Source: Thermoplasmatales archaeon SW_10_69_26
GTDB taxonomy: Archaea > Thermoplasmatota > SW-10-69-26
NCBI GenBank assembly: GCA_003009755.1
Contig: PXUB01000025.1
Location: 144,877 to 172,346 of the forward strand
DNA length: 27,470 bases
Direction of reading: 5' to 3'
Below the pieces are notes generated by a model. That model searched no databases. It had not been told where the DNA came from and saw nothing but the letters and a program-made list of their open reading frames with translations. The position numbers and the translations under genes are program-made. Shown here piece after piece: positions 3,306 to 25,667 of this stretch (position 1 is the stretch's first letter; each line of letters opens with the position of its first letter).

Positions 3306-3884
3306 CTAGCGCTCGCCGGCGTAGCTGTCGCCGGCCTCGTCGAGCGGTTTGACCATGTAGCGGGCCTTGTCTTCGAAGCCCTCGCGCTCGTACAGCCGCT
3401 GAGCTGGGTTCTCCTCGAGCACCTCCAAGCTCATCCGGGCCAAGTCCTCCTCGCGGGCCCAGGCCTCGGCGGCTTGCAGGAGCTTGGCCCCGATGCCGTC
3501 GCCGCGGTGGTCCTCGAGGACGGCGATGTCGTGGACGTTGAGCGTGGACGAGGCGGCAAAAGTGGAGAACGTCACGATTCCGGTCAGGATGCCCACGGGA
3601 TGCCTCGCCCTCTCCCAGTCTTCGTGCCCTGCATCCCGTGGTCTCTCGGCACGGGAGCCCTCGTCGCCCCGTCCCGAGATCCCGACGGGCTCGCCCTCGC
3701 GTTCGGCCAGCCAGACGACGACGTTGCCGTGCTCGCGCATCGCCTCGACGAGCCCGTCCTGCACCTCGTCGGGCAGCGGCTCGCCGCCACCCATCGGGTC
3801 CCGAGCGTAGGCGTCGGTGAGCTGCACGATCGTCTCCCGGTCGTCGGGATCGTCGAGCTCGGCCCGGCGGAGCGAGACGGGCAT
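3306..3884 (-). CDS. GNAT family N-acetyltransferase with internal insertion
   Basis: A 192-residue GNAT protein expected to move an acetyl group from acetyl-CoA to an amine; substrate unknown. Family landmarks are FSTFAASSTLNVHDIAVLED (beta4 and the active-site region), the acetyl-CoA loop HRGDGIGAKLL, the SLEVLEENPAQRLYEREGF motif, and VWLAEREGEPVGI before the insertion. In this subfamily VGI normally runs straight into the GxxxFSTFAA strand. Here about 30 residues rich in Arg, Asp and Glu intervene, flanked by a repeated Pro-Val-Gly-Ile (see the repeat entry). The frame stays open, so the protein may still fold with a surface loop. The ATG at 3884 lies 8 bases after the taw1 stop, so the two genes are probably co-transcribed. 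Confidence 0.85.
   Translation of the reverse strand: MPVSLRRAELDDPDDRETIVQLTDAYARDPMGGGEPLPDEVQDGLVEAMREHGNVVVWLAEREGEPVGISGRGDEGSRAERPRDAGHEDWERARHPVGILTGIVTFSTFAASSTLNVHDIAVLEDHRGDGIGAKLLQAAEAWAREEDLARMSLEVLEENPAQRLYEREGFEDKARYMVKPLDEAGDSYAGER
3588..3689. repeat. in-frame palindromic insertion inside the GNAT gene
   Basis: Direct repeats gatgcccacggg (3588-3599) and gatcccgacggg (3678-3689), two mismatches in 12, lie exactly 90 bases apart and both encode Pro-Val-Gly-Ile on the minus strand. Between them is a perfect 11-bp inverted repeat, ccacgggatgc (3593-3603) and gcatcccgtgg (3631-3641). The extra 30 codons fall where close GNAT homologues have no insertion. The structure resembles a small palindromic element with a target duplication, inserted without breaking the frame. 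Mobility is inferred; only the repeats are seen. Confidence 0.5.
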
Positions 3885-14374: not shown

Positions 14375-14428
14375 TCCCCAAGCCCGGTCGGGCCCTGTTG
14401 TCGGCTCAATACCGACCGGGCTTGGGGA
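14375..14428. repeat. 17-bp inverted repeat spanning the end of alaX
   Basis: The sequence tccccaagcccggtcgg (14375-14391) is the exact inverse complement of ccgaccgggcttgggga (14412-14428), with a 20-base spacer. The right arm lies in the last codons of alaX (Pro-Lys-Pro-Gly-Arg) and its TGA stop falls in the loop. In RNA from either strand this is a strong hairpin between two convergent genes. It could stabilise or end both messages. Confidence 0.8.
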
Positions 14429-17442: not shown

Positions 17443-19590
17443 ATGTCGGCTCCGCGCTCGCACGGCTGGCTGCTCCTCGCCCTCGGGGCGATGCTCGTCA
17501 TGGCCCCCACCGCGATGGCTCAAGGCAGCGAGGATCTCCCCCCGATCATGCCCCAGGACCTCACCGCGGACCCCTCCTTCGAGAACGTGTCCGCCGAGAC
17601 GGAGGAGATGGCGTTCACGGTCCAGCTGACCGCCGTCGAGGAGGCCTACACCGGCGACTTCACCGTCGACCTCTCGATCGAGGAGGAGCGCGTGGCTCTC
17701 ATCGAGGACACGTGGACCGCCGGCACGCAGACGCGGAACGTCACCACCGACGAGGACGCCGACCAGGGACCGGGCACGTGGTCGCCCTCCGTCGGCCTGC
17801 ACCCGTTCAACCTGACCGTCTCCGCCGACGGCGAGTCCTTCCCCCTCGAGTTCAAGCTCCCAACCGGGCCCGACCTCACCGTGGAAGGCTCCGAACGCGG
17901 CGCCGAGCCCACCCTCGACGTCACGATGGAGCCCGCCGAGCCCGCCCCCGGCGACGAGGTGACCTTCCACCTCAACGTCACCAACCAGGGCTCGTGGGCG
18001 ACCCCCGAGGGCACCCCGGCGCCCGTGGCGTTGACGCTGGACGGCGAAGAGATCGGTCGGACCACCGTCCAGAACCTCGAGGCCGAGGAGGACACCCAGC
18101 TCACGTTCGCGGACGCCTGGACCGCCGAGGGCGGCCACCACACCATCGCCGCCACCGCCGCCAAGGACGCGTTCGAGGAGATCCTCGACGAGAACAACAA
18201 CGCCTCGATGGCCTTCACCGTGCAACAGCCCGGCCTCAGCGTGCGCGCTCTGGAGGCCAGCCCGAGCCCGGTGCCCGCCAACGGCAGCCTCACCCTGGAG
18301 GCCACGCTCGAGAACACCGCCTCCGAGCGGCGGGAGGCCAGCACGACCGCCGTCTACCTGGACGGCGAGTTGCACCGCGAGACCGACACCGAGGCGGTCG
18401 AGCCCGGGGAGACGACGAACGTCACCTGGCAGCTGGAGCCGGACGTCGGCGTGCACGAGCTCACCGTCCTGCCGGAAGCCGAGGACGCCCCCGACGAGCC
18501 GCCGGCCGACGCCAGCTCGGCCACGCGAACCGTCACCGTCGGTCCCGACCTGGCCGTGACCGGCGTCGGCACCGAGCCCGCGCAGCCGCTCACCGGCGAC
18601 GAGGTCACCGTCAACGCCACGGTCACGAACCGCGGAGCTGCGACGAACGGCTCGGTCCCCGTCGCCTTGATCGATCGGCTCGGGGACCAGACGTATGCGA
18701 GCACGAACGTCTCCGCGTTGGAGACCGGCGAGCGGACCGAGGTCGAGCTCACCCTCGAGCCCGAGGCCGGCGACTACGATCTCCTGTTCCAGATCGATCC
18801 CGAGGAGGCCATCGGCCAGGCCGAGCGCGGCAACGACCACGGGTTCGTCTCCTTCACCGTCCGCGAGCAGGAACCCGAGCTCGTGATCGAGTCGGTCGGG
18901 TTCGAGGACGAGCTGGTGCCCGGTCAACGCCGGCCCGCCCAGGTCACCGTCACCAACGAGGGCTCGGACACGGTCACCGATCTCGAGGCTCGCTTCCAGG
19001 TGGACGACACCCTGCTCGGCCAAGGGGCCGACGTGGGCAGCTTGGACCCCGACGAGACCGCGACCGTCGAGAGCCGCAACTGGACGGCCGAGGCCGGCGA
19101 GCACGAGCTGTCCGTCCGCATCGGCTCCCCGCACGACTTCGCCGCCGGCCACCCGCTGGTCTCGGCGACGCGGACCGTGACCGTCGCCGACGCCGACGCG
19201 AACCTGACCGTCGGCGAGCTGGCGACCGAGCCGGCCCGGCCCAGCCCCGGCGACGAGGTGAAGCTGTTGCTCGACGTCACCAACGAGGGCCCGGTGCCGG
19301 CGACCGGGTTCACCGTCGAGTTCACCGTGGACGGCGAGCGCATCGGCATGCGGACCGTCGACGAGCTCGCGCCCGGCGCCAACCGGACGCTGGAGAGCCC
19401 GGCGTGGACGCTGGACGCCGAGACGACCTCGGCCAGCGCCGTCGTCGCCCCGAACAGCGAGGACCTCGAGACGCGGGAGATCACCGCGACCCTCGCCGAG
19501 GCCTCCAGCGACGTGCCGGGGCCGGCCCCCGTCGCGATCCTCGCCGCGATCGCGTCGGCGGCCGTGGCCGGCGTCCGCCGGCGCGGGTAG
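17443..19590 (+). CDS. CARDB-repeat surface protein (5 repeats)
   Basis: A 715-residue exported protein. The signal peptide ends at AMAQ (about residue 27). An N-terminal beta domain (about 28-140) is followed by five CARDB (cell adhesion related, bacterial/archaeal) beta-sandwich repeats starting near residues 143, 263, 367, 479 and 585. Each begins like GPDLAVTGVGTEPAQPLTGD and runs through TVTNRG-type strands. The C-terminus (VPGPAP, a small-residue hydrophobic helix, then VRRRG) resembles archaeosortase anchors but without Pro-Gly-Phe. Many N-x-S/T sequons fit N-glycosylation. It is the first of three related genes in a row. Probably an envelope or adhesion protein; ligand unknown. Confidence 0.88.
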   Translation: MSAPRSHGWLLLALGAMLVMAPTAMAQGSEDLPPIMPQDLTADPSFENVSAETEEMAFTVQLTAVEEAYTGDFTVDLSIEEERVALIEDTWTAGTQTRNVTTDEDADQGPGTWSPSVGLHPFNLTVSADGESFPLEFKLPTGPDLTVEGSERGAEPTLDVTMEPAEPAPGDEVTFHLNVTNQGSWATPEGTPAPVALTLDGEEIGRTTVQNLEAEEDTQLTFADAWTAEGGHHTIAATAAKDAFEEILDENNNASMAFTVQQPGLSVRALEASPSPVPANGSLTLEATLENTASERREASTTAVYLDGELHRETDTEAVEPGETTNVTWQLEPDVGVHELTVLPEAEDAPDEPPADASSATRTVTVGPDLAVTGVGTEPAQPLTGDEVTVNATVTNRGAATNGSVPVALIDRLGDQTYASTNVSALETGERTEVELTLEPEAGDYDLLFQIDPEEAIGQAERGNDHGFVSFTVREQEPELVIESVGFEDELVPGQRRPAQVTVTNEGSDTVTDLEARFQVDDTLLGQGADVGSLDPDETATVESRNWTAEAGEHELSVRIGSPHDFAAGHPLVSATRTVTVADADANLTVGELATEPARPSPGDEVKLLLDVTNEGPVPATGFTVEFTVDGERIGMRTVDELAPGANRTLESPAWTLDAETTSASAVVAPNSEDLETREITATLAEASSDVPGPAPVAILAAIASAAVAGVRRRG

Positions 19591-19636
19591 GCCCGTTCCG
19601 ACGGGTTCATGGGGTCCTGGATGGGTTCTCGGCGCG

Positions 19637-19930
19637 ATGGCCGCCCACCTGCTCGTCGAGTACACCGCGCGGGACGACGCCGTCGACGAGGCCCAGGCGG
19701 CCGCTCGCCGCTTTTGGGAGGACTCGCTCGAGGAGCCCCACCTCGTCCGCCACGAGGCCCACCGGATCGGCGAGACGCGGACGTTCCTCCACGTGCTCGA
19801 ATTCGAGGACGCGCTCGCGCTCCGCGAGCACCGGGAGCGCCCGCACACGGAGACGTTCACCGAGGAGATCACCGAGCTCCTCGACGGCGAGCTCGACGTC
19901 CGCCGTCTGCACCCCGTGAGCGAGGGCTAG
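19637..19930 (+). CDS. ABM-like (antibiotic biosynthesis monooxygenase fold) protein
   Basis: A 97-residue cytosolic protein with the pattern of a dimeric ferredoxin-like alpha-beta barrel: MAAHLLVEYTARDDAVDEAQ, FLHVLEFEDALALREHRERP and ETFTEEITELLDGELDVRRL. This resembles the ABM superfamily (quinol monooxygenases, heme-degrading and unknown-function members), though without diagnostic catalytic residues. It lies 46 bases after the first CARDB gene and before the second, with no clear TATA box, so it may share the upstream transcript. Assignment is tentative. Confidence 0.7.
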   Translation: MAAHLLVEYTARDDAVDEAQAAARRFWEDSLEEPHLVRHEAHRIGETRTFLHVLEFEDALALREHRERPHTETFTEEITELLDGELDVRRLHPVSEG

Positions 19931-19960
19931 GTCCGCCTGCCTGGGGCCTCGACCGCGAAG

Positions 19961-19969
19961 CCTTTTAAG
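19961..19969 (+). promoter_or_regulatory. TATA box deciding the start of the second CARDB gene
   Basis: The sequence ccttttaag is centred at about 19965, predicting transcription from about 19992. That is downstream of the in-frame ATG at 19979, so translation should begin at the ATG at 20000 with a leader of about 8 bases. Confidence 0.65.
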
Positions 19970-19999
19970 CTTCGAGCCATGGCTACATGTTCTGCGTCC

Positions 20000-22477
20000 A
20001 TGTCACACCTTCGGGTCATCGTCATCCTCGCGTCCTTCGCCGCGGCACTCGTGCTCGTCTCCGGCGGAGCCCAAGCTCAGCTCGACGACCCGGACCTCGT
20101 GGTCACCAACATCACCACCGACGAGACCCCCACGCCGGGTACCTCGACGCGGGTGCAGACCACGATCGAGAACCAGGGCGGCAGCCCTTCCAACGACTTC
20201 ACGGTGAACTTCACGCTCGATGGGGACCAGCTGGGCCAACCCGTCGACAACGGGAGCTTAGGCGAGGGCGAGAGCGCGGTCCTGAACTCCACGGTCCCCT
20301 GGACGGCCGAGGCCGGACAGACGCTCGTTGGCGTCAGCGTCGAGCACGACGACGGCGACTTCACGCAGGAGTCGAACACCGACAACAACGACGACAACCG
20401 CAGCTACACGATCGGGGCCGACCTGCGGGTCGACAGCTTCGATGTGGACCCGGTCGAGGTCGTCGAAGGCGACGAGATCGAGCTGACCGCCACGATCGAG
20501 AACGCAGCCGACCCCGAGGACGTGGCCCCCGACGCGGGCTCGTTCGAGGTCGGCTTCCCGATCGACGGCAGCAGCACGCTGGCCCCCGTCTCCGTCGAGG
20601 GGCTGGCCGCCGGCGAGTCGACGACCGTCTCGCGGACGTGGCCGACGACCGAGGGCGACGAAGGCCAGTACTCGGTCACCGCCGACGCCGACACCGACGA
20701 GGAGGTCGCCGACCGCGACCGGTCGAACAACGGTGCCGACGCGGTCACCGTGCAGGTCCGCAAGGCCCTGCCCGACCTCGTCGTCGCCGGCGCCACGTTC
20801 TCCCCCGACCCCGCCCAGGCCGACCGGCAGTTGACGTTCACCGCGGAGCTTCGCAACAATGGCCAGACCGACGCCGGCCCGCACAACGTTTCCCTGATCG
20901 TCGACGACGAGACCGTCGACCAGACCAGCGTCGACGGCCTCGACCAGGCCGGCCAACGCAACGTCTCCCTGACGTGGACCGCCGAGGCCGGCAACCACGA
21001 CATCGAGATCCGCACCGACGTCGACGACGCGATCGAGGAGACCAGCGAGGACAACAACCGGTGGACGCTCACGCTGCCCGTGGGCCCCGACCTGGTGCCC
21101 GACAGCCTCGACATCCAGCCGCCCGAGCCCCGCGCCGGCGACCGGGTGCGCTTCACCGTCCAGATCACCAACGACGGCCAGGCCGTCGACCAGCCGTTCT
21201 CCGTGTCGTTCGCGGTCGACGGGACGCCGATCAGCTCGGAGGAGCTCACCGGGCTCGACGGCGGCGAGGCCCGCAACGTCACCAGCATGCCCTGGAACGC
21301 GACCACCGGGGACCACGACGTGACCGCGATCGTCGACCCCGACGACGAGATCGGCGAGGTCGACCGGCAGAACAACCAGTTCGAGCAGTCCCTGACCGTG
21401 GGCGAGCCGCGCCCGAACGTGGTCGTGCTGTCCGCCAGCCTGGACCCCGTCGCCCCCGAAGACGGCGAGCAGGCGACCGTGCGAGCCAAGGTCGAGAACG
21501 CCGGCGCCCGCGAAGCCGACGCGTTCACCGTCCGCAGCCTCGTCGACGACGAGGAGAGCGGCCAAGCCAGTGTCGACGGGCTCGGCGCAGGCGAGACGAC
21601 CGACGTCGAGCTGGGCGAGTGGACGGCCGAGACCGGCTCCCACGAACTCGCCATCGAGGCCGACGTGGACGAGGAGATCGAGGAGGGCAACGAGCAGGAC
21701 AACCGGTTCGTCCGCGAGCTCGGCATCGGCGCCGACCTGGACCTGCTCGAACTGTCCGTCTCCCCCACCGACCCCGAACCGGGTGAGAACGTGACCGCGT
21801 TCGCGCTCGCCCAGAACAACGGCTCGGTCGCCACCGCGGCCACGAACGTCAGCTTCCACCTCGACGGCGATCGCATCGGGACGATCCCGCTGGACGGCTT
21901 GGGCCCCAACGAGCAAGGTAGCGCCGAGATCACGTTCACGGCGGCCCGCTCCGGCGCGCTCGAGGCGCGCCTCGACACCGACGACACCGTCGACGAGTAC
22001 GACGAGGACAACAACCAGGGCCAGCGAGCGATCGAGCTCGCCAGCGAGGCCCAACCGCCCGATCTCACGGTGCGCTCGGTCGCCAGCGAGGGCGACATCG
22101 GCCAGGACGACGAGGTCCGCTTCGTCGCCGCGATCGCCAACGAGGGCGCCGGGCCATCGCCCGAGGCGCTCGTCGAGTTCCGCGCCGACGGCGAGCCGAT
22201 CGGGGCCCCGGTGAGCGTCGACGGGCTGCCAGCCGGCTCGGCGACCAACGTGACGAGCCCGGCCTTCGAGCCCGACGGCGAGACCGAGCTCGAGGTCGTC
22301 GTCGACCCCAACGACGGCGTCGGCGAAGCCGACGAGACGAACAACGTCGTCACCGAGTCGATCGACGCCTCCGCCGCGGTCGGCGTCCCCGTTCCACCCA
22401 TCGCGGCGATCCTCGGCCTCTCGACGGCCGCTCTCGCGGCCCGCCGGCTCGGTGGGAGCAAGCGGAAACCTCCTTAA
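20000..22477 (+). CDS. CARDB-repeat surface protein (7 repeats)
   Basis: An 825-residue exported protein. MSHLRVIVILASFAAALVLV forms the signal peptide, cleaved near AQAQ. Seven CARDB repeats start near residues 30, 139, 259, 362, 472, 577 and 686, each about 105-115 residues. Most repeats end with an acidic Asn-Asn turn such as SEDNNRWT or DEDNNQGQ, a conserved feature of this local family. The C-terminal anchor is GVPVPPIAAILGLSTAALAA followed by RRLGGSKRKPP, a longer basic tail than in its neighbours. The start is set by the TATA box at 19961-19969. The gene's stop codon lies inside the promoter of the next CARDB gene. Ligand unknown. Confidence 0.9.
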   Translation: MSHLRVIVILASFAAALVLVSGGAQAQLDDPDLVVTNITTDETPTPGTSTRVQTTIENQGGSPSNDFTVNFTLDGDQLGQPVDNGSLGEGESAVLNSTVPWTAEAGQTLVGVSVEHDDGDFTQESNTDNNDDNRSYTIGADLRVDSFDVDPVEVVEGDEIELTATIENAADPEDVAPDAGSFEVGFPIDGSSTLAPVSVEGLAAGESTTVSRTWPTTEGDEGQYSVTADADTDEEVADRDRSNNGADAVTVQVRKALPDLVVAGATFSPDPAQADRQLTFTAELRNNGQTDAGPHNVSLIVDDETVDQTSVDGLDQAGQRNVSLTWTAEAGNHDIEIRTDVDDAIEETSEDNNRWTLTLPVGPDLVPDSLDIQPPEPRAGDRVRFTVQITNDGQAVDQPFSVSFAVDGTPISSEELTGLDGGEARNVTSMPWNATTGDHDVTAIVDPDDEIGEVDRQNNQFEQSLTVGEPRPNVVVLSASLDPVAPEDGEQATVRAKVENAGAREADAFTVRSLVDDEESGQASVDGLGAGETTDVELGEWTAETGSHELAIEADVDEEIEEGNEQDNRFVRELGIGADLDLLELSVSPTDPEPGENVTAFALAQNNGSVATAATNVSFHLDGDRIGTIPLDGLGPNEQGSAEITFTAARSGALEARLDTDDTVDEYDEDNNQGQRAIELASEAQPPDLTVRSVASEGDIGQDDEVRFVAAIANEGAGPSPEALVEFRADGEPIGAPVSVDGLPAGSATNVTSPAFEPDGETELEVVVDPNDGVGEADETNNVVTESIDASAAVGVPVPPIAAILGLSTAALAARRLGGSKRKPP

Positions 22478-22479
22478 AC
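22471..22479 (+). promoter_or_regulatory. TATA box of the third CARDB gene, overlapping the upstream stop codon
   Basis: The sequence tccttaaac is centred 27 bases before the ATG at 22503 and contains the TAA stop (22475-22477) of the preceding gene. This rules out the in-frame start at 22452 and predicts a leaderless message. Confidence 0.7.
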
Positions 22480-22502
22480 GTAGACGGCTAGTTCGAACCC
22501 TC

Positions 22503-25500
22503 ATGCGCCTGGGGACCCTCGTGGCAGCGCTCACGCTCGTCTTCGCCGCCTTCACCCCGGTTGTCGGGGCTCAACCGGGCACCGCCGCTCCCGATATCGA
22601 GGTCACCGACGTCGGGTGGGACCAGCTCGTGCTGGACGAGCCCACGACCTTCACCGCCACGGTCCACAACGGCGGTGACGAGGCCCGCGAGGAGCCCTTC
22701 GACGTCGTGGTGAGCCTGGAGGACGCCGGCTTCGAGCAGACGGTCACGGTCGACCAGCTCAACGCCAGCGAGACCGTCACCGTGTCCACGCCCGAGCCCT
22801 GGACCGCGAACACCGGGCGCTACACGGTGAACGCGACCGCCGACGTCGACGAAGGCGGGACGCTGGACGAGAACCGGAACGCGAACAACCACCGCAACCG
22901 CTCGTTCGCGATCGGTCCCGACCTCACGCTGCACGAGATCCGCCTGGATCCGTCGACCCCGATCGAGGGCCAGGGCGTGCAGGTGTCGGCCAAGATCGAG
23001 AACGTGGCCCGGCGCGGCGAGCACGACATCCAGACGCCGTTCACCGTCTCCTTCGACGTCGAAGAGACCGAGGTCACGCTCACCACGGACCCGATCCAAC
23101 AGCTGCGCCCCAACGATCCCGTGTGGGTGCAGGCCAACCAGGCTTGGACGCCCGAGGAGGGATCCTACACGGTGAACGCCGAGGCCGATCCCGACGGGAA
23201 CGTGACCGAGATCAGCGAGGACAACAACACCGCCCAACGCGCCGTCACCGTGAAGGCGGCCCAGCCCGACCTCGTGCTCACCGACGTTTCCCCCAGCCAG
23301 CGGCCGGCTCCGGGCGACGAGGTCGCGGTCCAGGCGACGATCGAGAACCAGGGCACCGCGGACGTCACCGACGGCTTCGACGTCCGGTTCCGGATCAACG
23401 GGACCACGCACGGGCCCGACGTCGCTGCCGGGATCGACGAGGACGGGCTCCAGCCGGGCGAGAACGTGACGGTGAGCAGCCAGGCGTGGACCGCCAGCGA
23501 GGGCTCTCACCAGCTGGAAGCAATCGCCGATCCCGCCGACAACGTGACCGAGAGCCGCTCGGGGAACAACGAGCGGGTGCGCACCGTGCACGTGGGCCCC
23601 GACCTCGTCGTGTCCGACGTTCTGTGGACGCCGGACCCGACCGCCGTCCGCCACGAGACCTCGATCGAGGCTCGCGTCCTCAACCAAGGGACCGTGGACG
23701 TGACCGAGACCACGAGCCTCGACGTCGAGATCCCCGACGAGGTCTCGTTCAGCGCCGACGTGAGCCCGCTGGGGGCCGGCGACTCCGTGCAGCTCACCGT
23801 CGGCACGTGGGAGGCCCCCACCGAGAACACGACCTACCCGGTCGAGGCTCGGGCCGACGCCGACGAGGACGCGTCCGAGATCGACGAGGACAACAACCTC
23901 CGCGAGGAGCAGATGGTCGTGACCGAGGCCCGCCCGGACCTGGTGACCAGCGAGGTGCGCCTGGACCCGCCGACCCCGGCCTCGGGCGAGGACGCCCGGA
24001 TCGAGGCGACGATCGAGAACAACGGCTCGGCCGCGCCCGAGGAGGACATCGAGGTCCAGTTCCGCGTGGACGGCGAACCGGTCGGCGAGCCAGGCACGAT
24101 CGACAACGGCCCCGTCGAGGAGTTCGGGCCCGGGAGCTCGACCACCGTGACCAGCGACGCCTGGACGACGACGACCGGCGTCCACGAGGTCTCCGTCCAC
24201 GCCGACCCCGAGGGCAACGAGACCGAGATCCGCGAGGACAACAACGAGGCCACCCGCGAGGAGGCGATCGGTCCGGATGCCCAGCTCGTCGACATCGACC
24301 GCTCCCCCGAGGATGCCGACGTGGGCGAGACCGTCAACGTCGACGTGGTCGTCGCCAACGCCGGCACCGAGACGATCGACGACGTGCCCGTGGACGTCCT
24401 CGTCGACGGCGAGCCCGTCGGCAACGCCACCGCCGAGCAGCTCGAGCCCGGCGCCAACGCGACGGTCTCCGTCCCGTGGGCGAGCACCGAGGGCGACCAC
24501 ACGGTGCGCGCCGTCGCCGATCCGGGGGGCCTGGTCTCCGAGGCTCGCGAGGACAACAACGCCCGCGAGGAGAGCTTCTCGGCGACGACCAGCGCCGACC
24601 TGCAGGCCACCGCGATCCGATCCAGCGACGACCCGCGCACCGGCGACAAGCTGCGGTTCACCGCGCGCGTCGCCAACACCGGGACCGCGCCGGTGGAAGG
24701 CAGCTTCACGACGACGTTCCACGTCGACGACGAACCGATCGGGACGGTCGAGCTCGACGGCATGGGCGTGGGCAACTCCACGACCGCCGTCAGCGACACG
24801 TGGACGGCCGAACCCGGCAGCCACACGGTGCGCGTCGTCGTCGACGCCGACGACGCCGTGAGGGAGGAGGACGGCGAGGACGACAACGAGCGGACGACGC
24901 AGATCCGCGTCGCCGAACCCGACGGTGACCAGCCGACCCGGTCGGGCCCGGTGAACCTCACCGTGTCGGGCATCTCGGTGCCGGACCCCATCGCGCCGGG
25001 CGACGCCGTCACCTTCCTCGCGACGATCGGCAACGAGGGCGGCCAGCGCGCGCCGGTCACCGAGGCTCGCATCCTGATCGACGGCGAGGCCGTGGGCCAA
25101 CCCGAGGTCGACGAGCTGGGGGCCGGCCAGCGTATCTCGGTCACCAGCGACACCTGGAACGCCACGCGCGGCGAGCACACGATCACCGTGATCGCGGACG
25201 TGCTCGACGACGCGGACGAGAGCGACGAGGAGGACAACGAGCGCGTCAAACGCATCCAGGTCGGCAACGCCACCTCGCCCGACGAGGGCAACGAGGCCGA
25301 CGGCGGCTTGTCGCTGGGCCCGGTGTCCACGACCGAGCCAGTGCAGGCCGGCCAGACGACGCGTCCGACCGTCGAGGCCACGAACCGCGGCCCGGACCCG
25401 GTCGACGTGACCGTGACGTTCTACATCGACGGCTCGCAGCTGGGCGAGGCCAGCCTCGTCGGGCTCGACCCCGGGCAGACGGCGACGCTCGAGGGGCCCG

Positions 25501-25667
25501 ACTGGGAGCCCACGCCAGGCGAGCACACGATCACGGCCCGCGCCGACGACGCCCAAGCCGAGACCCTCGTCGACGCCGGCGAGGCCACCGACGACGCGCC
25601 CGCGCCGGGCCTGGCGGCTTCGATCGCCGCGCTGGCCGCCGCCGGGTTCCTGCGTCGGCGGTGGTGA
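22503..25667 (+). CDS. CARDB-repeat surface protein (9 repeats)
   Basis: A 1054-residue exported protein. The signal peptide MRLGTLVAALTLVFAAFTPV ends near VVGAQ. Nine CARDB repeats start near residues 29, 138, 254, 365, 477, 589, 697, 814 and 934, with frequent SEDNNT / DEDNNL / REDNNE turns at repeat ends and many Asn sequons. The C-terminus is APAPGL, an Ala-rich helix, then FLRRRW. The long stalk-like array should project from the cell surface. The TGA stop is one base before the GTG of an ABC ATPase, so translation is probably coupled and the protein may work with that transporter. This is inference; CARDB ligands are unknown. Confidence 0.9.
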   Translation: MRLGTLVAALTLVFAAFTPVVGAQPGTAAPDIEVTDVGWDQLVLDEPTTFTATVHNGGDEAREEPFDVVVSLEDAGFEQTVTVDQLNASETVTVSTPEPWTANTGRYTVNATADVDEGGTLDENRNANNHRNRSFAIGPDLTLHEIRLDPSTPIEGQGVQVSAKIENVARRGEHDIQTPFTVSFDVEETEVTLTTDPIQQLRPNDPVWVQANQAWTPEEGSYTVNAEADPDGNVTEISEDNNTAQRAVTVKAAQPDLVLTDVSPSQRPAPGDEVAVQATIENQGTADVTDGFDVRFRINGTTHGPDVAAGIDEDGLQPGENVTVSSQAWTASEGSHQLEAIADPADNVTESRSGNNERVRTVHVGPDLVVSDVLWTPDPTAVRHETSIEARVLNQGTVDVTETTSLDVEIPDEVSFSADVSPLGAGDSVQLTVGTWEAPTENTTYPVEARADADEDASEIDEDNNLREEQMVVTEARPDLVTSEVRLDPPTPASGEDARIEATIENNGSAAPEEDIEVQFRVDGEPVGEPGTIDNGPVEEFGPGSSTTVTSDAWTTTTGVHEVSVHADPEGNETEIREDNNEATREEAIGPDAQLVDIDRSPEDADVGETVNVDVVVANAGTETIDDVPVDVLVDGEPVGNATAEQLEPGANATVSVPWASTEGDHTVRAVADPGGLVSEAREDNNAREESFSATTSADLQATAIRSSDDPRTGDKLRFTARVANTGTAPVEGSFTTTFHVDDEPIGTVELDGMGVGNSTTAVSDTWTAEPGSHTVRVVVDADDAVREEDGEDDNERTTQIRVAEPDGDQPTRSGPVNLTVSGISVPDPIAPGDAVTFLATIGNEGGQRAPVTEARILIDGEAVGQPEVDELGAGQRISVTSDTWNATRGEHTITVIADVLDDADESDEEDNERVKRIQVGNATSPDEGNEADGGLSLGPVSTTEPVQAGQTTRPTVEATNRGPDPVDVTVTFYIDGSQLGEASLVGLDPGQTATLEGPDWEPTPGEHTITARADDAQAETLVDAGEATDDAPAPGLAASIAALAAAGFLRRRW

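What the first reader, a model, noticed from the sequence alone, without database searches (positions are those of the whole stretch)
3588..3689. In-frame palindromic element inside a GNAT acetyltransferase
A 90-base block between 12-bp direct repeats (two mismatches) carries a perfect 11-bp inverted repeat and adds exactly 30 codons within the acetyltransferase, right before the conserved FSTFAA strand. Both direct repeats encode Pro-Val-Gly-Ile, so the host protein reads smoothly on both sides. This is reminiscent of palindromic elements in Rickettsia that insert into genes without breaking them; I know of no such element described in this kind of archaeon.
Basis: partly seen in the sequence, partly recalled or inferred. 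Interest (0 to 1): 0.7.

Follow-up and report, generated by a model that had tools for sequence, protein, structure and literature searches.

The report
Stray tRNA-linked hairpin inside acetyltransferase gene
A 90-base folded DNA element has landed in-frame inside an archaeal acetyltransferase gene, and it is a stray copy of a family of two-hairpin repeats that mostly sits in tandem beside this organism's tRNA genes, so noncoding repeat DNA has become part of a protein.

Summary
Window 3588-3689 holds a 90-bp, stop-free block between 12-bp direct repeats inside a GNAT gene (minus strand, 3306-3884). It adds 30 residues that Pfam and homologues lack. The two repeats differ only at synonymous third positions (CCC GTC GGG ATC / CCC GTG GGC ATC).

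The block is not unique. A covariance model built from one other locus only (unit B, contig C1) finds it at 53.5 bits (E 1.6e-10; next hit in the window 0.02). The same model finds units beside many other tRNA genes of this genome. The shared architecture is direct repeat (a copy of the neighbouring gene's 3' end), antisense copy, one or two hairpins, direct repeat. 15 of 41 tRNA genes carry downstream copies of their own 3' end (control 6/1634). A distant relative shows the same (8/30); two nearer relatives do not (0/15 each). One array sits at a thermosome gene's 3' end.

The insert is therefore best read as a stray tRNA-Glu-type cassette that entered GNAT at a chance match to the tRNA-Glu 3' end. 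The enzyme, if any, is unidentified. The Rickettsia comparison holds only for the outcome: 1 of about 27 copies lies inside a protein gene.

The parts
3306..3884 (-). GNAT-family N-acetyltransferase gene (192 aa) that hosts the insert
   Evidence: ORF; Pfam Acetyltransf_1 E 1.8e-16
3590..3692 (-). Two-hairpin cassette, full-length match to the family model
   Evidence: Model R2 (unit B only) 53.5 bits, E 1.6e-10; model R3 (16 other copies, this one excluded) 49.5 bits, E 7e-7
3678..3689 (-). Upstream direct repeat CCCGTCGGGATC (Pro-Val-Gly-Ile); CCCGTCGGGAT equals the antisense 3' end of tRNA-Glu(CTC) of this genome
3588..3599 (-). Downstream direct repeat CCCGTGGGCATC (Pro-Val-Gly-Ile), two synonymous differences
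3644..3679 (-). Hairpin 1 (12-bp stem, one mismatch); it was not in the finding
   Evidence: aligned in register with unit B
3631..3641 (-). Hairpin 2, 5' arm CCACGGGATGC, antisense copy of the downstream direct repeat
3593..3603 (-). Hairpin 2, 3' arm GCATCCCGTGG, overlapping the downstream direct repeat
3604..3630 (-). Loop/spacer of hairpin 2 (27 nt)

Best explanation
The block is a non-autonomous, folded repeat cassette. Its family has the architecture: direct repeat, antisense copy of that repeat, one or two hairpins, direct repeat. The direct repeat is normally the 3' end of a tRNA gene, and cassettes accumulate there in tandem, each restoring the gene's 3' end. One cassette of the tRNA-Glu type entered GNAT where the codons for Pro-Val-Gly-Ile happened to read CCCGTCGGGATC, an 11-bp match to the antisense 3' end of tRNA-Glu. 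Recombination between the direct repeats, probably by a tyrosine recombinase acting in trans at a secondary attachment site, duplicated that sequence around the cassette. The cassette is 90 bp and free of stops in every frame, so the reading frame survived. The duplicated PVGI lets the next strand start normally, and the insert is expected to form an extended loop between strands beta2 and beta3. Shown: family membership, architecture, direct repeats, in-frame insertion, absence in homologues. Inferred: the recombinase, the direction of movement, and that the protein still works.
For: Model R2, built from unit B alone, finds the GNAT copy at E 1.6e-10 in the window and finds units beside many other tRNA genes. 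R3, trained without this copy, gives E 7e-7 in the window. Smith-Waterman score to unit B is 44 against at most 38 in 12,000 same-genome windows, and the best of those windows are themselves a tRNA-Glu unit. Hairpin pairing with compensatory changes: 11 of 24 pairs double-changed, 0 of 500 shuffles as high. The tRNA-Glu(CTC) 3' end matches CCCGTCGGGAT exactly, and five or more copies lie in one orientation on C1. 15/41 tRNA genes have downstream copies of their own 3' end against 6/1634 control pairs. A thermosome gene's 3' end is duplicated 108 bp downstream with its antisense. The GNAT junction is ungapped without the insert. The insert's GC3 is unlike the gene. Archaeal integrases use tRNA att sites as short as 8-14 bp and can use secondary sites (PMC8371274).
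Against: No recombinase is tied to the cassettes. The integrase-like gene ending on the tRNA-Glu repeat (C1:121991-122953) reaches only a sub-cutoff Pfam score (19.8 bits, cutoff 27.1), has no PHROG match, and appears frameshifted. Cassettes at many different tRNAs each carry that tRNA's own repeat, which one site-specific enzyme would not easily explain. With the direct repeats removed, sequence similarity of this copy to unit B is modest (97/5000 shuffles as high); membership rests on repeat, geometry and sequence together. No close orthologue with an empty site was found, only distant GNATs.
Confidence: 0.6

Rival explanations
1. Same family, but no dedicated enzyme: a broken GNAT strand annealed by about 12 bp of chance homology to the tRNA-Glu array, copied one cassette by template switching, and returned through the next direct repeat. 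The tRNA-side arrays would grow the same way at stable hairpins.
For: The inserted unit is bounded exactly by the homologous repeats. The sense-antisense-sense pattern at tRNA and thermosome 3' ends is what fold-back template switching makes. Each tRNA uses its own end. No mobilising gene was found.
Against: The two hairpins share a consensus between loci with different tRNAs, so a defined sequence has moved; simple local template switching would not bring the same hairpin to different genes.
Confidence: 0.25
2. Single-strand hairpin transposition like IS200/IS605 derivatives, or like the small mobile repeats of Haloquadratum that insert into palindromes; tRNA arms would be the palindromic targets.
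For: Size of about 70-110 bp, hairpins, no coding capacity, preference for tRNA arms; Haloquadratum SMR-A elements are about 110 bp and target palindromes (PMC3119063).
Against: These elements make no target duplication, while this family is bounded by 12-16 bp direct repeats. No TnpA was sought or seen.
Confidence: 0.1
3. A native, if unusual, surface loop of GNAT; the repeats and palindrome are coincidence in GC-rich DNA.
For: A distant GNAT from Acidimicrobiia has its own low-complexity loop of about 18 residues at the same place, so the site tolerates loops. Folding energy of the block is ordinary for this DNA.
Against: E 1.6e-10 with an independent model; nested direct and inverted repeats are unique in the window; GC3 of the block is out of line with the gene.
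Confidence: 0.03
4. An archaeal counterpart of Rickettsia palindromic elements: selfish DNA adapted to live inside protein genes.
For: In-frame, stop-free in all frames, palindromic, repeated family.
Against: Only one intragenic copy among about 27; no conserved peptide.
Confidence: 0.02

Closest known systems
Rickettsia palindromic elements (RPE)
   Same: Short palindromic repeat inserted in frame inside a protein gene without breaking it; members also outside genes
   Different: Here 1 of about 27 copies is intragenic, the main habitat is tRNA 3' and 5' ends, the cassette is bounded by direct repeats copied from a gene end, and stems vary by compensatory change. RPE facts are from the review PMC10969869; the original papers were not held
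Small mobile repeats SMR-A of Haloquadratum walsbyi (PMC3119063)
   Same: About 110 bp, noncoding, palindromic, in an archaeal genome, mobilisation unknown, strong target preference
   Different: SMR-A make no target duplication, have terminal inverted repeats, and target IS605/PATE palindromes; this family is bounded by direct repeats and sits at tRNA and gene ends
Integrated elements at tRNA 3' ends and the tRNA fragments they leave (PMC8371274, PMC9897764)
   Same: Direct repeats identical to the tRNA 3' end; the gene end is restored; tandem accretion; an integrase-like gene ends on the same repeat at C1
   Different: Units of about 100 bp with no genes, two covarying hairpins and an antisense copy of the repeat, at over a third of tRNA genes
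MITEs
   Same: Short non-autonomous repeats, multi-copy, sometimes fused to ORFs
   Different: No terminal inverted repeats shared with a transposase were found

Membership tests
Rickettsia palindromic elements | Repeated palindromic element with copies elsewhere in the genome | tested here: met
   27 model hits at E <= 0.1 in own genome
Rickettsia palindromic elements | Recurrent in-frame insertion in unrelated protein genes | tested here: not met
   Only the GNAT copy lies inside a protein gene; the others are beside tRNAs, intergenic or 3' of genes
SMR-A small mobile repeats | No target duplication | tested here: not met
   Flanking 12-16 bp direct repeats
SMR-A small mobile repeats | Insertion in palindromes of IS605-type elements and PATEs | tested here: inconclusive
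   Targets are tRNA arms; seven copies lie in an intergenic composite repeat of unknown kind
MITE | Terminal inverted repeats shared with a resident transposase | not tested
   No transposase search of the genome was made; the inverted repeat here is an antisense copy of one flanking direct repeat
tRNA-targeting integrative elements (tyrosine recombinase) | Direct repeats equal to the target gene's 3' end | tested here: met
   15/41 tRNA genes against 6/1634 control pairs; thermosome gene. For GNAT the match is to the tRNA-Glu end, not to a gene end
tRNA-targeting integrative elements (tyrosine recombinase) | Integrase gene next to the site | tested here: inconclusive
   Integrase-like ORF C1:121991-122953 ends on the tRNA-Glu repeat, sub-cutoff PF00589 E 7e-4, apparently frameshifted; none near GNAT was sought beyond the window ORFs
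Known Rfam RNA families | Match at usable score to a curated family | tested here: not met
   cmscan of L003 and L001 gave only two sub-threshold chance hits outside the units

The most novel reading that the evidence does not exclude
This archaeon, and patchily others in its phylum, carries an undescribed class of tiny folded cassettes that accumulate in integron-like tandem arrays at tRNA and protein-gene ends, each carrying a copy and an antisense copy of the gene end. A recombination system that reads structure more than sequence moves them, and they can seed new protein segments when they land in reading frames.
Probability: 0.25. Interest if true: 0.85.

Novelty: new variant of a known kind. 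Interest (0 to 1): 0.62.

Why it matters
It links a protein insertion to a repeat family that decorates over a third of the tRNA genes examined in an archaeal genome, and gives a concrete example of noncoding tRNA-linked DNA becoming protein sequence. The tRNA arrays, with preserved pairing under strong sequence drift and a patchy distribution, point to a mobility or recombination process that I could not match to any described one. Because each array is anchored by direct repeats, excision and insertion can be tested directly by PCR and sequencing.

Tried and rejected
BLAST of the block in the genome: the formally best second hit (C7, 84% over 38 nt) is a chance coding match, so BLAST E-values near 1e-4 were not trusted. 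Element in viral contigs: pattern search for hairpin 2 of the tRNA-Glu type found nothing. Close GNAT orthologues: none in genome contigs except one distant Acidimicrobiia protein, none in viral contigs; none among 59 genomes of the phylum. Strict tRNA-Glu pattern in 389 phylum genomes: only this genome and G011. Family model R3 in 144 relatives: none at E <= 1e-3 with strict filters; this misses G011, whose units differ, so absence is weak evidence. Rfam: nothing. A model from units A-D without the GNAT copy could not be aligned properly, so the one-unit model R2 was used instead. AlphaFold model of GNAT with a two-sequence alignment: mean pLDDT 41.5, too poor to use. Casposase target duplication (14-15 nt at tRNA ends, own knowledge) was considered: the conserved antisense copy and hairpins do not fit random spacer capture; no Cas1 search was made. 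The whole genome was not available as a file, so copies too diverged for the models may be missed.

Full report
**Observation.** On the minus strand, ORF 3306-3884 encodes a 192-aa GNAT acetyltransferase. Residues 70-99 (SGRGDEGSRAERPRDAGHEDWERARHPVGI) are extra. Pfam Acetyltransf_1 aligns 121 residues to 92 positions, and removing them raises the best relative's tblastn score from 55.5 to 63.9 bits with an ungapped junction EPVGI|LTGIVTFSTF. The 90 bp lie between CCCGTCGGGATC and CCCGTGGGCATC. Both read Pro-Val-Gly-Ile, and the two differences are synonymous. The block has no stop in any of six frames. Its GC3 is 0.73 against 0.93 for the rest of the gene, a value matched by 12 of 566 30-codon windows of neighbouring genes.

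**Anatomy.** Read on the coding strand the order is: direct repeat CCCGTCGGGATC; hairpin 1 TCTCGGGACGGG...CCCGTGCCGAGA (3679-3644); hairpin 2, whose 5' arm CCACGGGATGC (3641-3631) pairs perfectly with GCATCCCGTGG (3603-3593); then the downstream repeat, which overlaps that 3' arm. The palindrome alone is weak evidence: 11-bp inverted repeats occur by chance a few times per 27 kb, and the folding energy is ordinary. Its nesting in a direct-repeat pair is unique in the window.

**Other copies.** A BLAST search of the genome pointed to C1:114373 (75% over 57 nt). There, tandem units A, B and C, and a further unit D at C1:107602, share the layout, separated by TGGTCCCGTCGGGAT. This repeat is the reverse complement of the 3' end of tRNA-Glu(CTC) at C1:122935-123009. 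The GNAT copy aligns in register with unit B in both hairpins. Across A, B, C, D and the GNAT copy, 11 of 24 pairs show double compensatory changes, with 0 of 500 shuffles as high. To avoid circularity, a model was built from unit B alone (R2). It finds the GNAT copy at 53.5 bits, E 1.6e-10, with the next hit in the window at 0.02. It also finds units beside other tRNA genes, for example C34 near the tRNA at C34:9989 at 53.1 bits, and two units beside tRNA-Glu in the distant relative G011; generic loci stay above 0.01. A model from 16 such copies without the GNAT copy (R3) gives 49.5 bits, E 7e-7 in the window. Without the direct repeats, plain sequence similarity to unit B is modest (97/5000 shuffles), so membership rests on repeat, geometry and sequence together.

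**The family's habitat.** Of 41 tRNA genes here, 15 have a copy of their own last 15 nt within 700 bp downstream, mostly 109-140 bp away and up to two in the strict count (three by eye at C32:67097). Ends of other tRNAs give 6 hits in 1634 trials. Reading the flanks shows a common order: tRNA 3' end, spacer, antisense copy of the T-arm or acceptor end, one or two hairpins, next copy of the 3' end starting at the T-loop. Some tRNAs also have copies of their 5' end upstream (3/41). G011, of another family, shows 8/30 against 3/864. G001 (same family) and G003 (same class) show 0/15 each, so the trait is patchy. R3 finds 27 copies in this genome at E <= 0.1. By inspection, most flank tRNAs, seven lie in an intergenic composite repeat, one array follows a thermosome gene whose 3' end is duplicated 108 bp downstream with its antisense, and only the GNAT copy is inside a protein gene.

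**Mechanism.** Shown: the GNAT insert is a family member, bounded by direct repeats, in frame, absent from homologues. Inferred: the cassette recombined into GNAT through the 11-12 bp match between the PVGI codons and the tRNA-Glu end. A tyrosine recombinase at a secondary site is my first choice. tRNA 3' ends and gene 3' ends are classical attachment sites, archaeal att cores can be 8-14 bp with secondary sites known (PMC8371274), and an integrase-like ORF ends exactly on the tRNA-Glu repeat (C1:121991-122953, ending DGPVGI*). That ORF scores below the Pfam cutoff and looks frameshifted. Homology-driven template switching from the tRNA-Glu array is the main rival and needs no enzyme. How the arrays adopt each tRNA's own end is not explained by either.

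**Comparison.** The outcome resembles Rickettsia palindromic elements (summarised in PMC10969869), but recurrent intragenic insertion is not met. Size and enigmatic mobility resemble the SMR-A repeats of Haloquadratum (PMC3119063), but those make no target duplications. tRNA fragments left by integrated elements are known (PMC9897764), but not as 100-bp hairpin cassettes. I found no description of such arrays in eight literature searches. Most subscription papers are not held, so this is weak evidence of novelty.

**Limits.** The genome is a draft and unnamed. No close relative with an empty GNAT site was found. The AlphaFold model was too poor to use. The models may miss diverged copies. No experiment shows that the protein is made.

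Noticed in passing
L136 (C32:67097), L130 (C34:9989), L125 (C42:19003), L138, L147, L149, L156, L157, L159, L161 flanks: Tandem copies of the tRNA's own 3' end downstream, with antisense copies and hairpins in each unit; at more than a third of the tRNA genes of this genome.
   Followed up: partly
L144 (C1:123200-123700), L130, L136, upstream of the tRNA: Mirror arrangement at tRNA 5' ends: repeated 5' halves with hairpins at the D-loop position.
   Followed up: partly
L093 (G011 C19:33054-33363): Two cassettes of the same architecture next to tRNA-Glu(TTC) in an archaeon of another family, with compensatory stem differences.
   Followed up: partly
L249 (C42:29735), 1442-1700: Thermosome gene 3' end duplicated 108 bp downstream (20/23) with an antisense copy and hairpins.
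   Followed up: yes
L234, L237, L240, L241, L242, L252: Intergenic composite palindromic repeat family (about 300 bp) containing the same hairpin pairs.
   Followed up: partly
C1:107715-122935 (L087): Two apparent integrated elements in tandem at tRNA-Glu(CTC), with integrase-like C-termini at their tRNA-proximal ends and cassettes between them.
   Followed up: partly
window 14375-14428: 17-bp perfect inverted repeat between convergent genes, probably a bidirectional terminator; weak R2 hit (E 0.02).
   Followed up: no
window 17443-25667: Three consecutive large secreted paralogues that look like CARDB-type repeat proteins with C-terminal anchors (by eye, no domain search).
   Followed up: no
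L091:2740-3309: An Acidimicrobiia GNAT has a low-complexity ADEP-rich loop at the same position as the insert.
   Followed up: no
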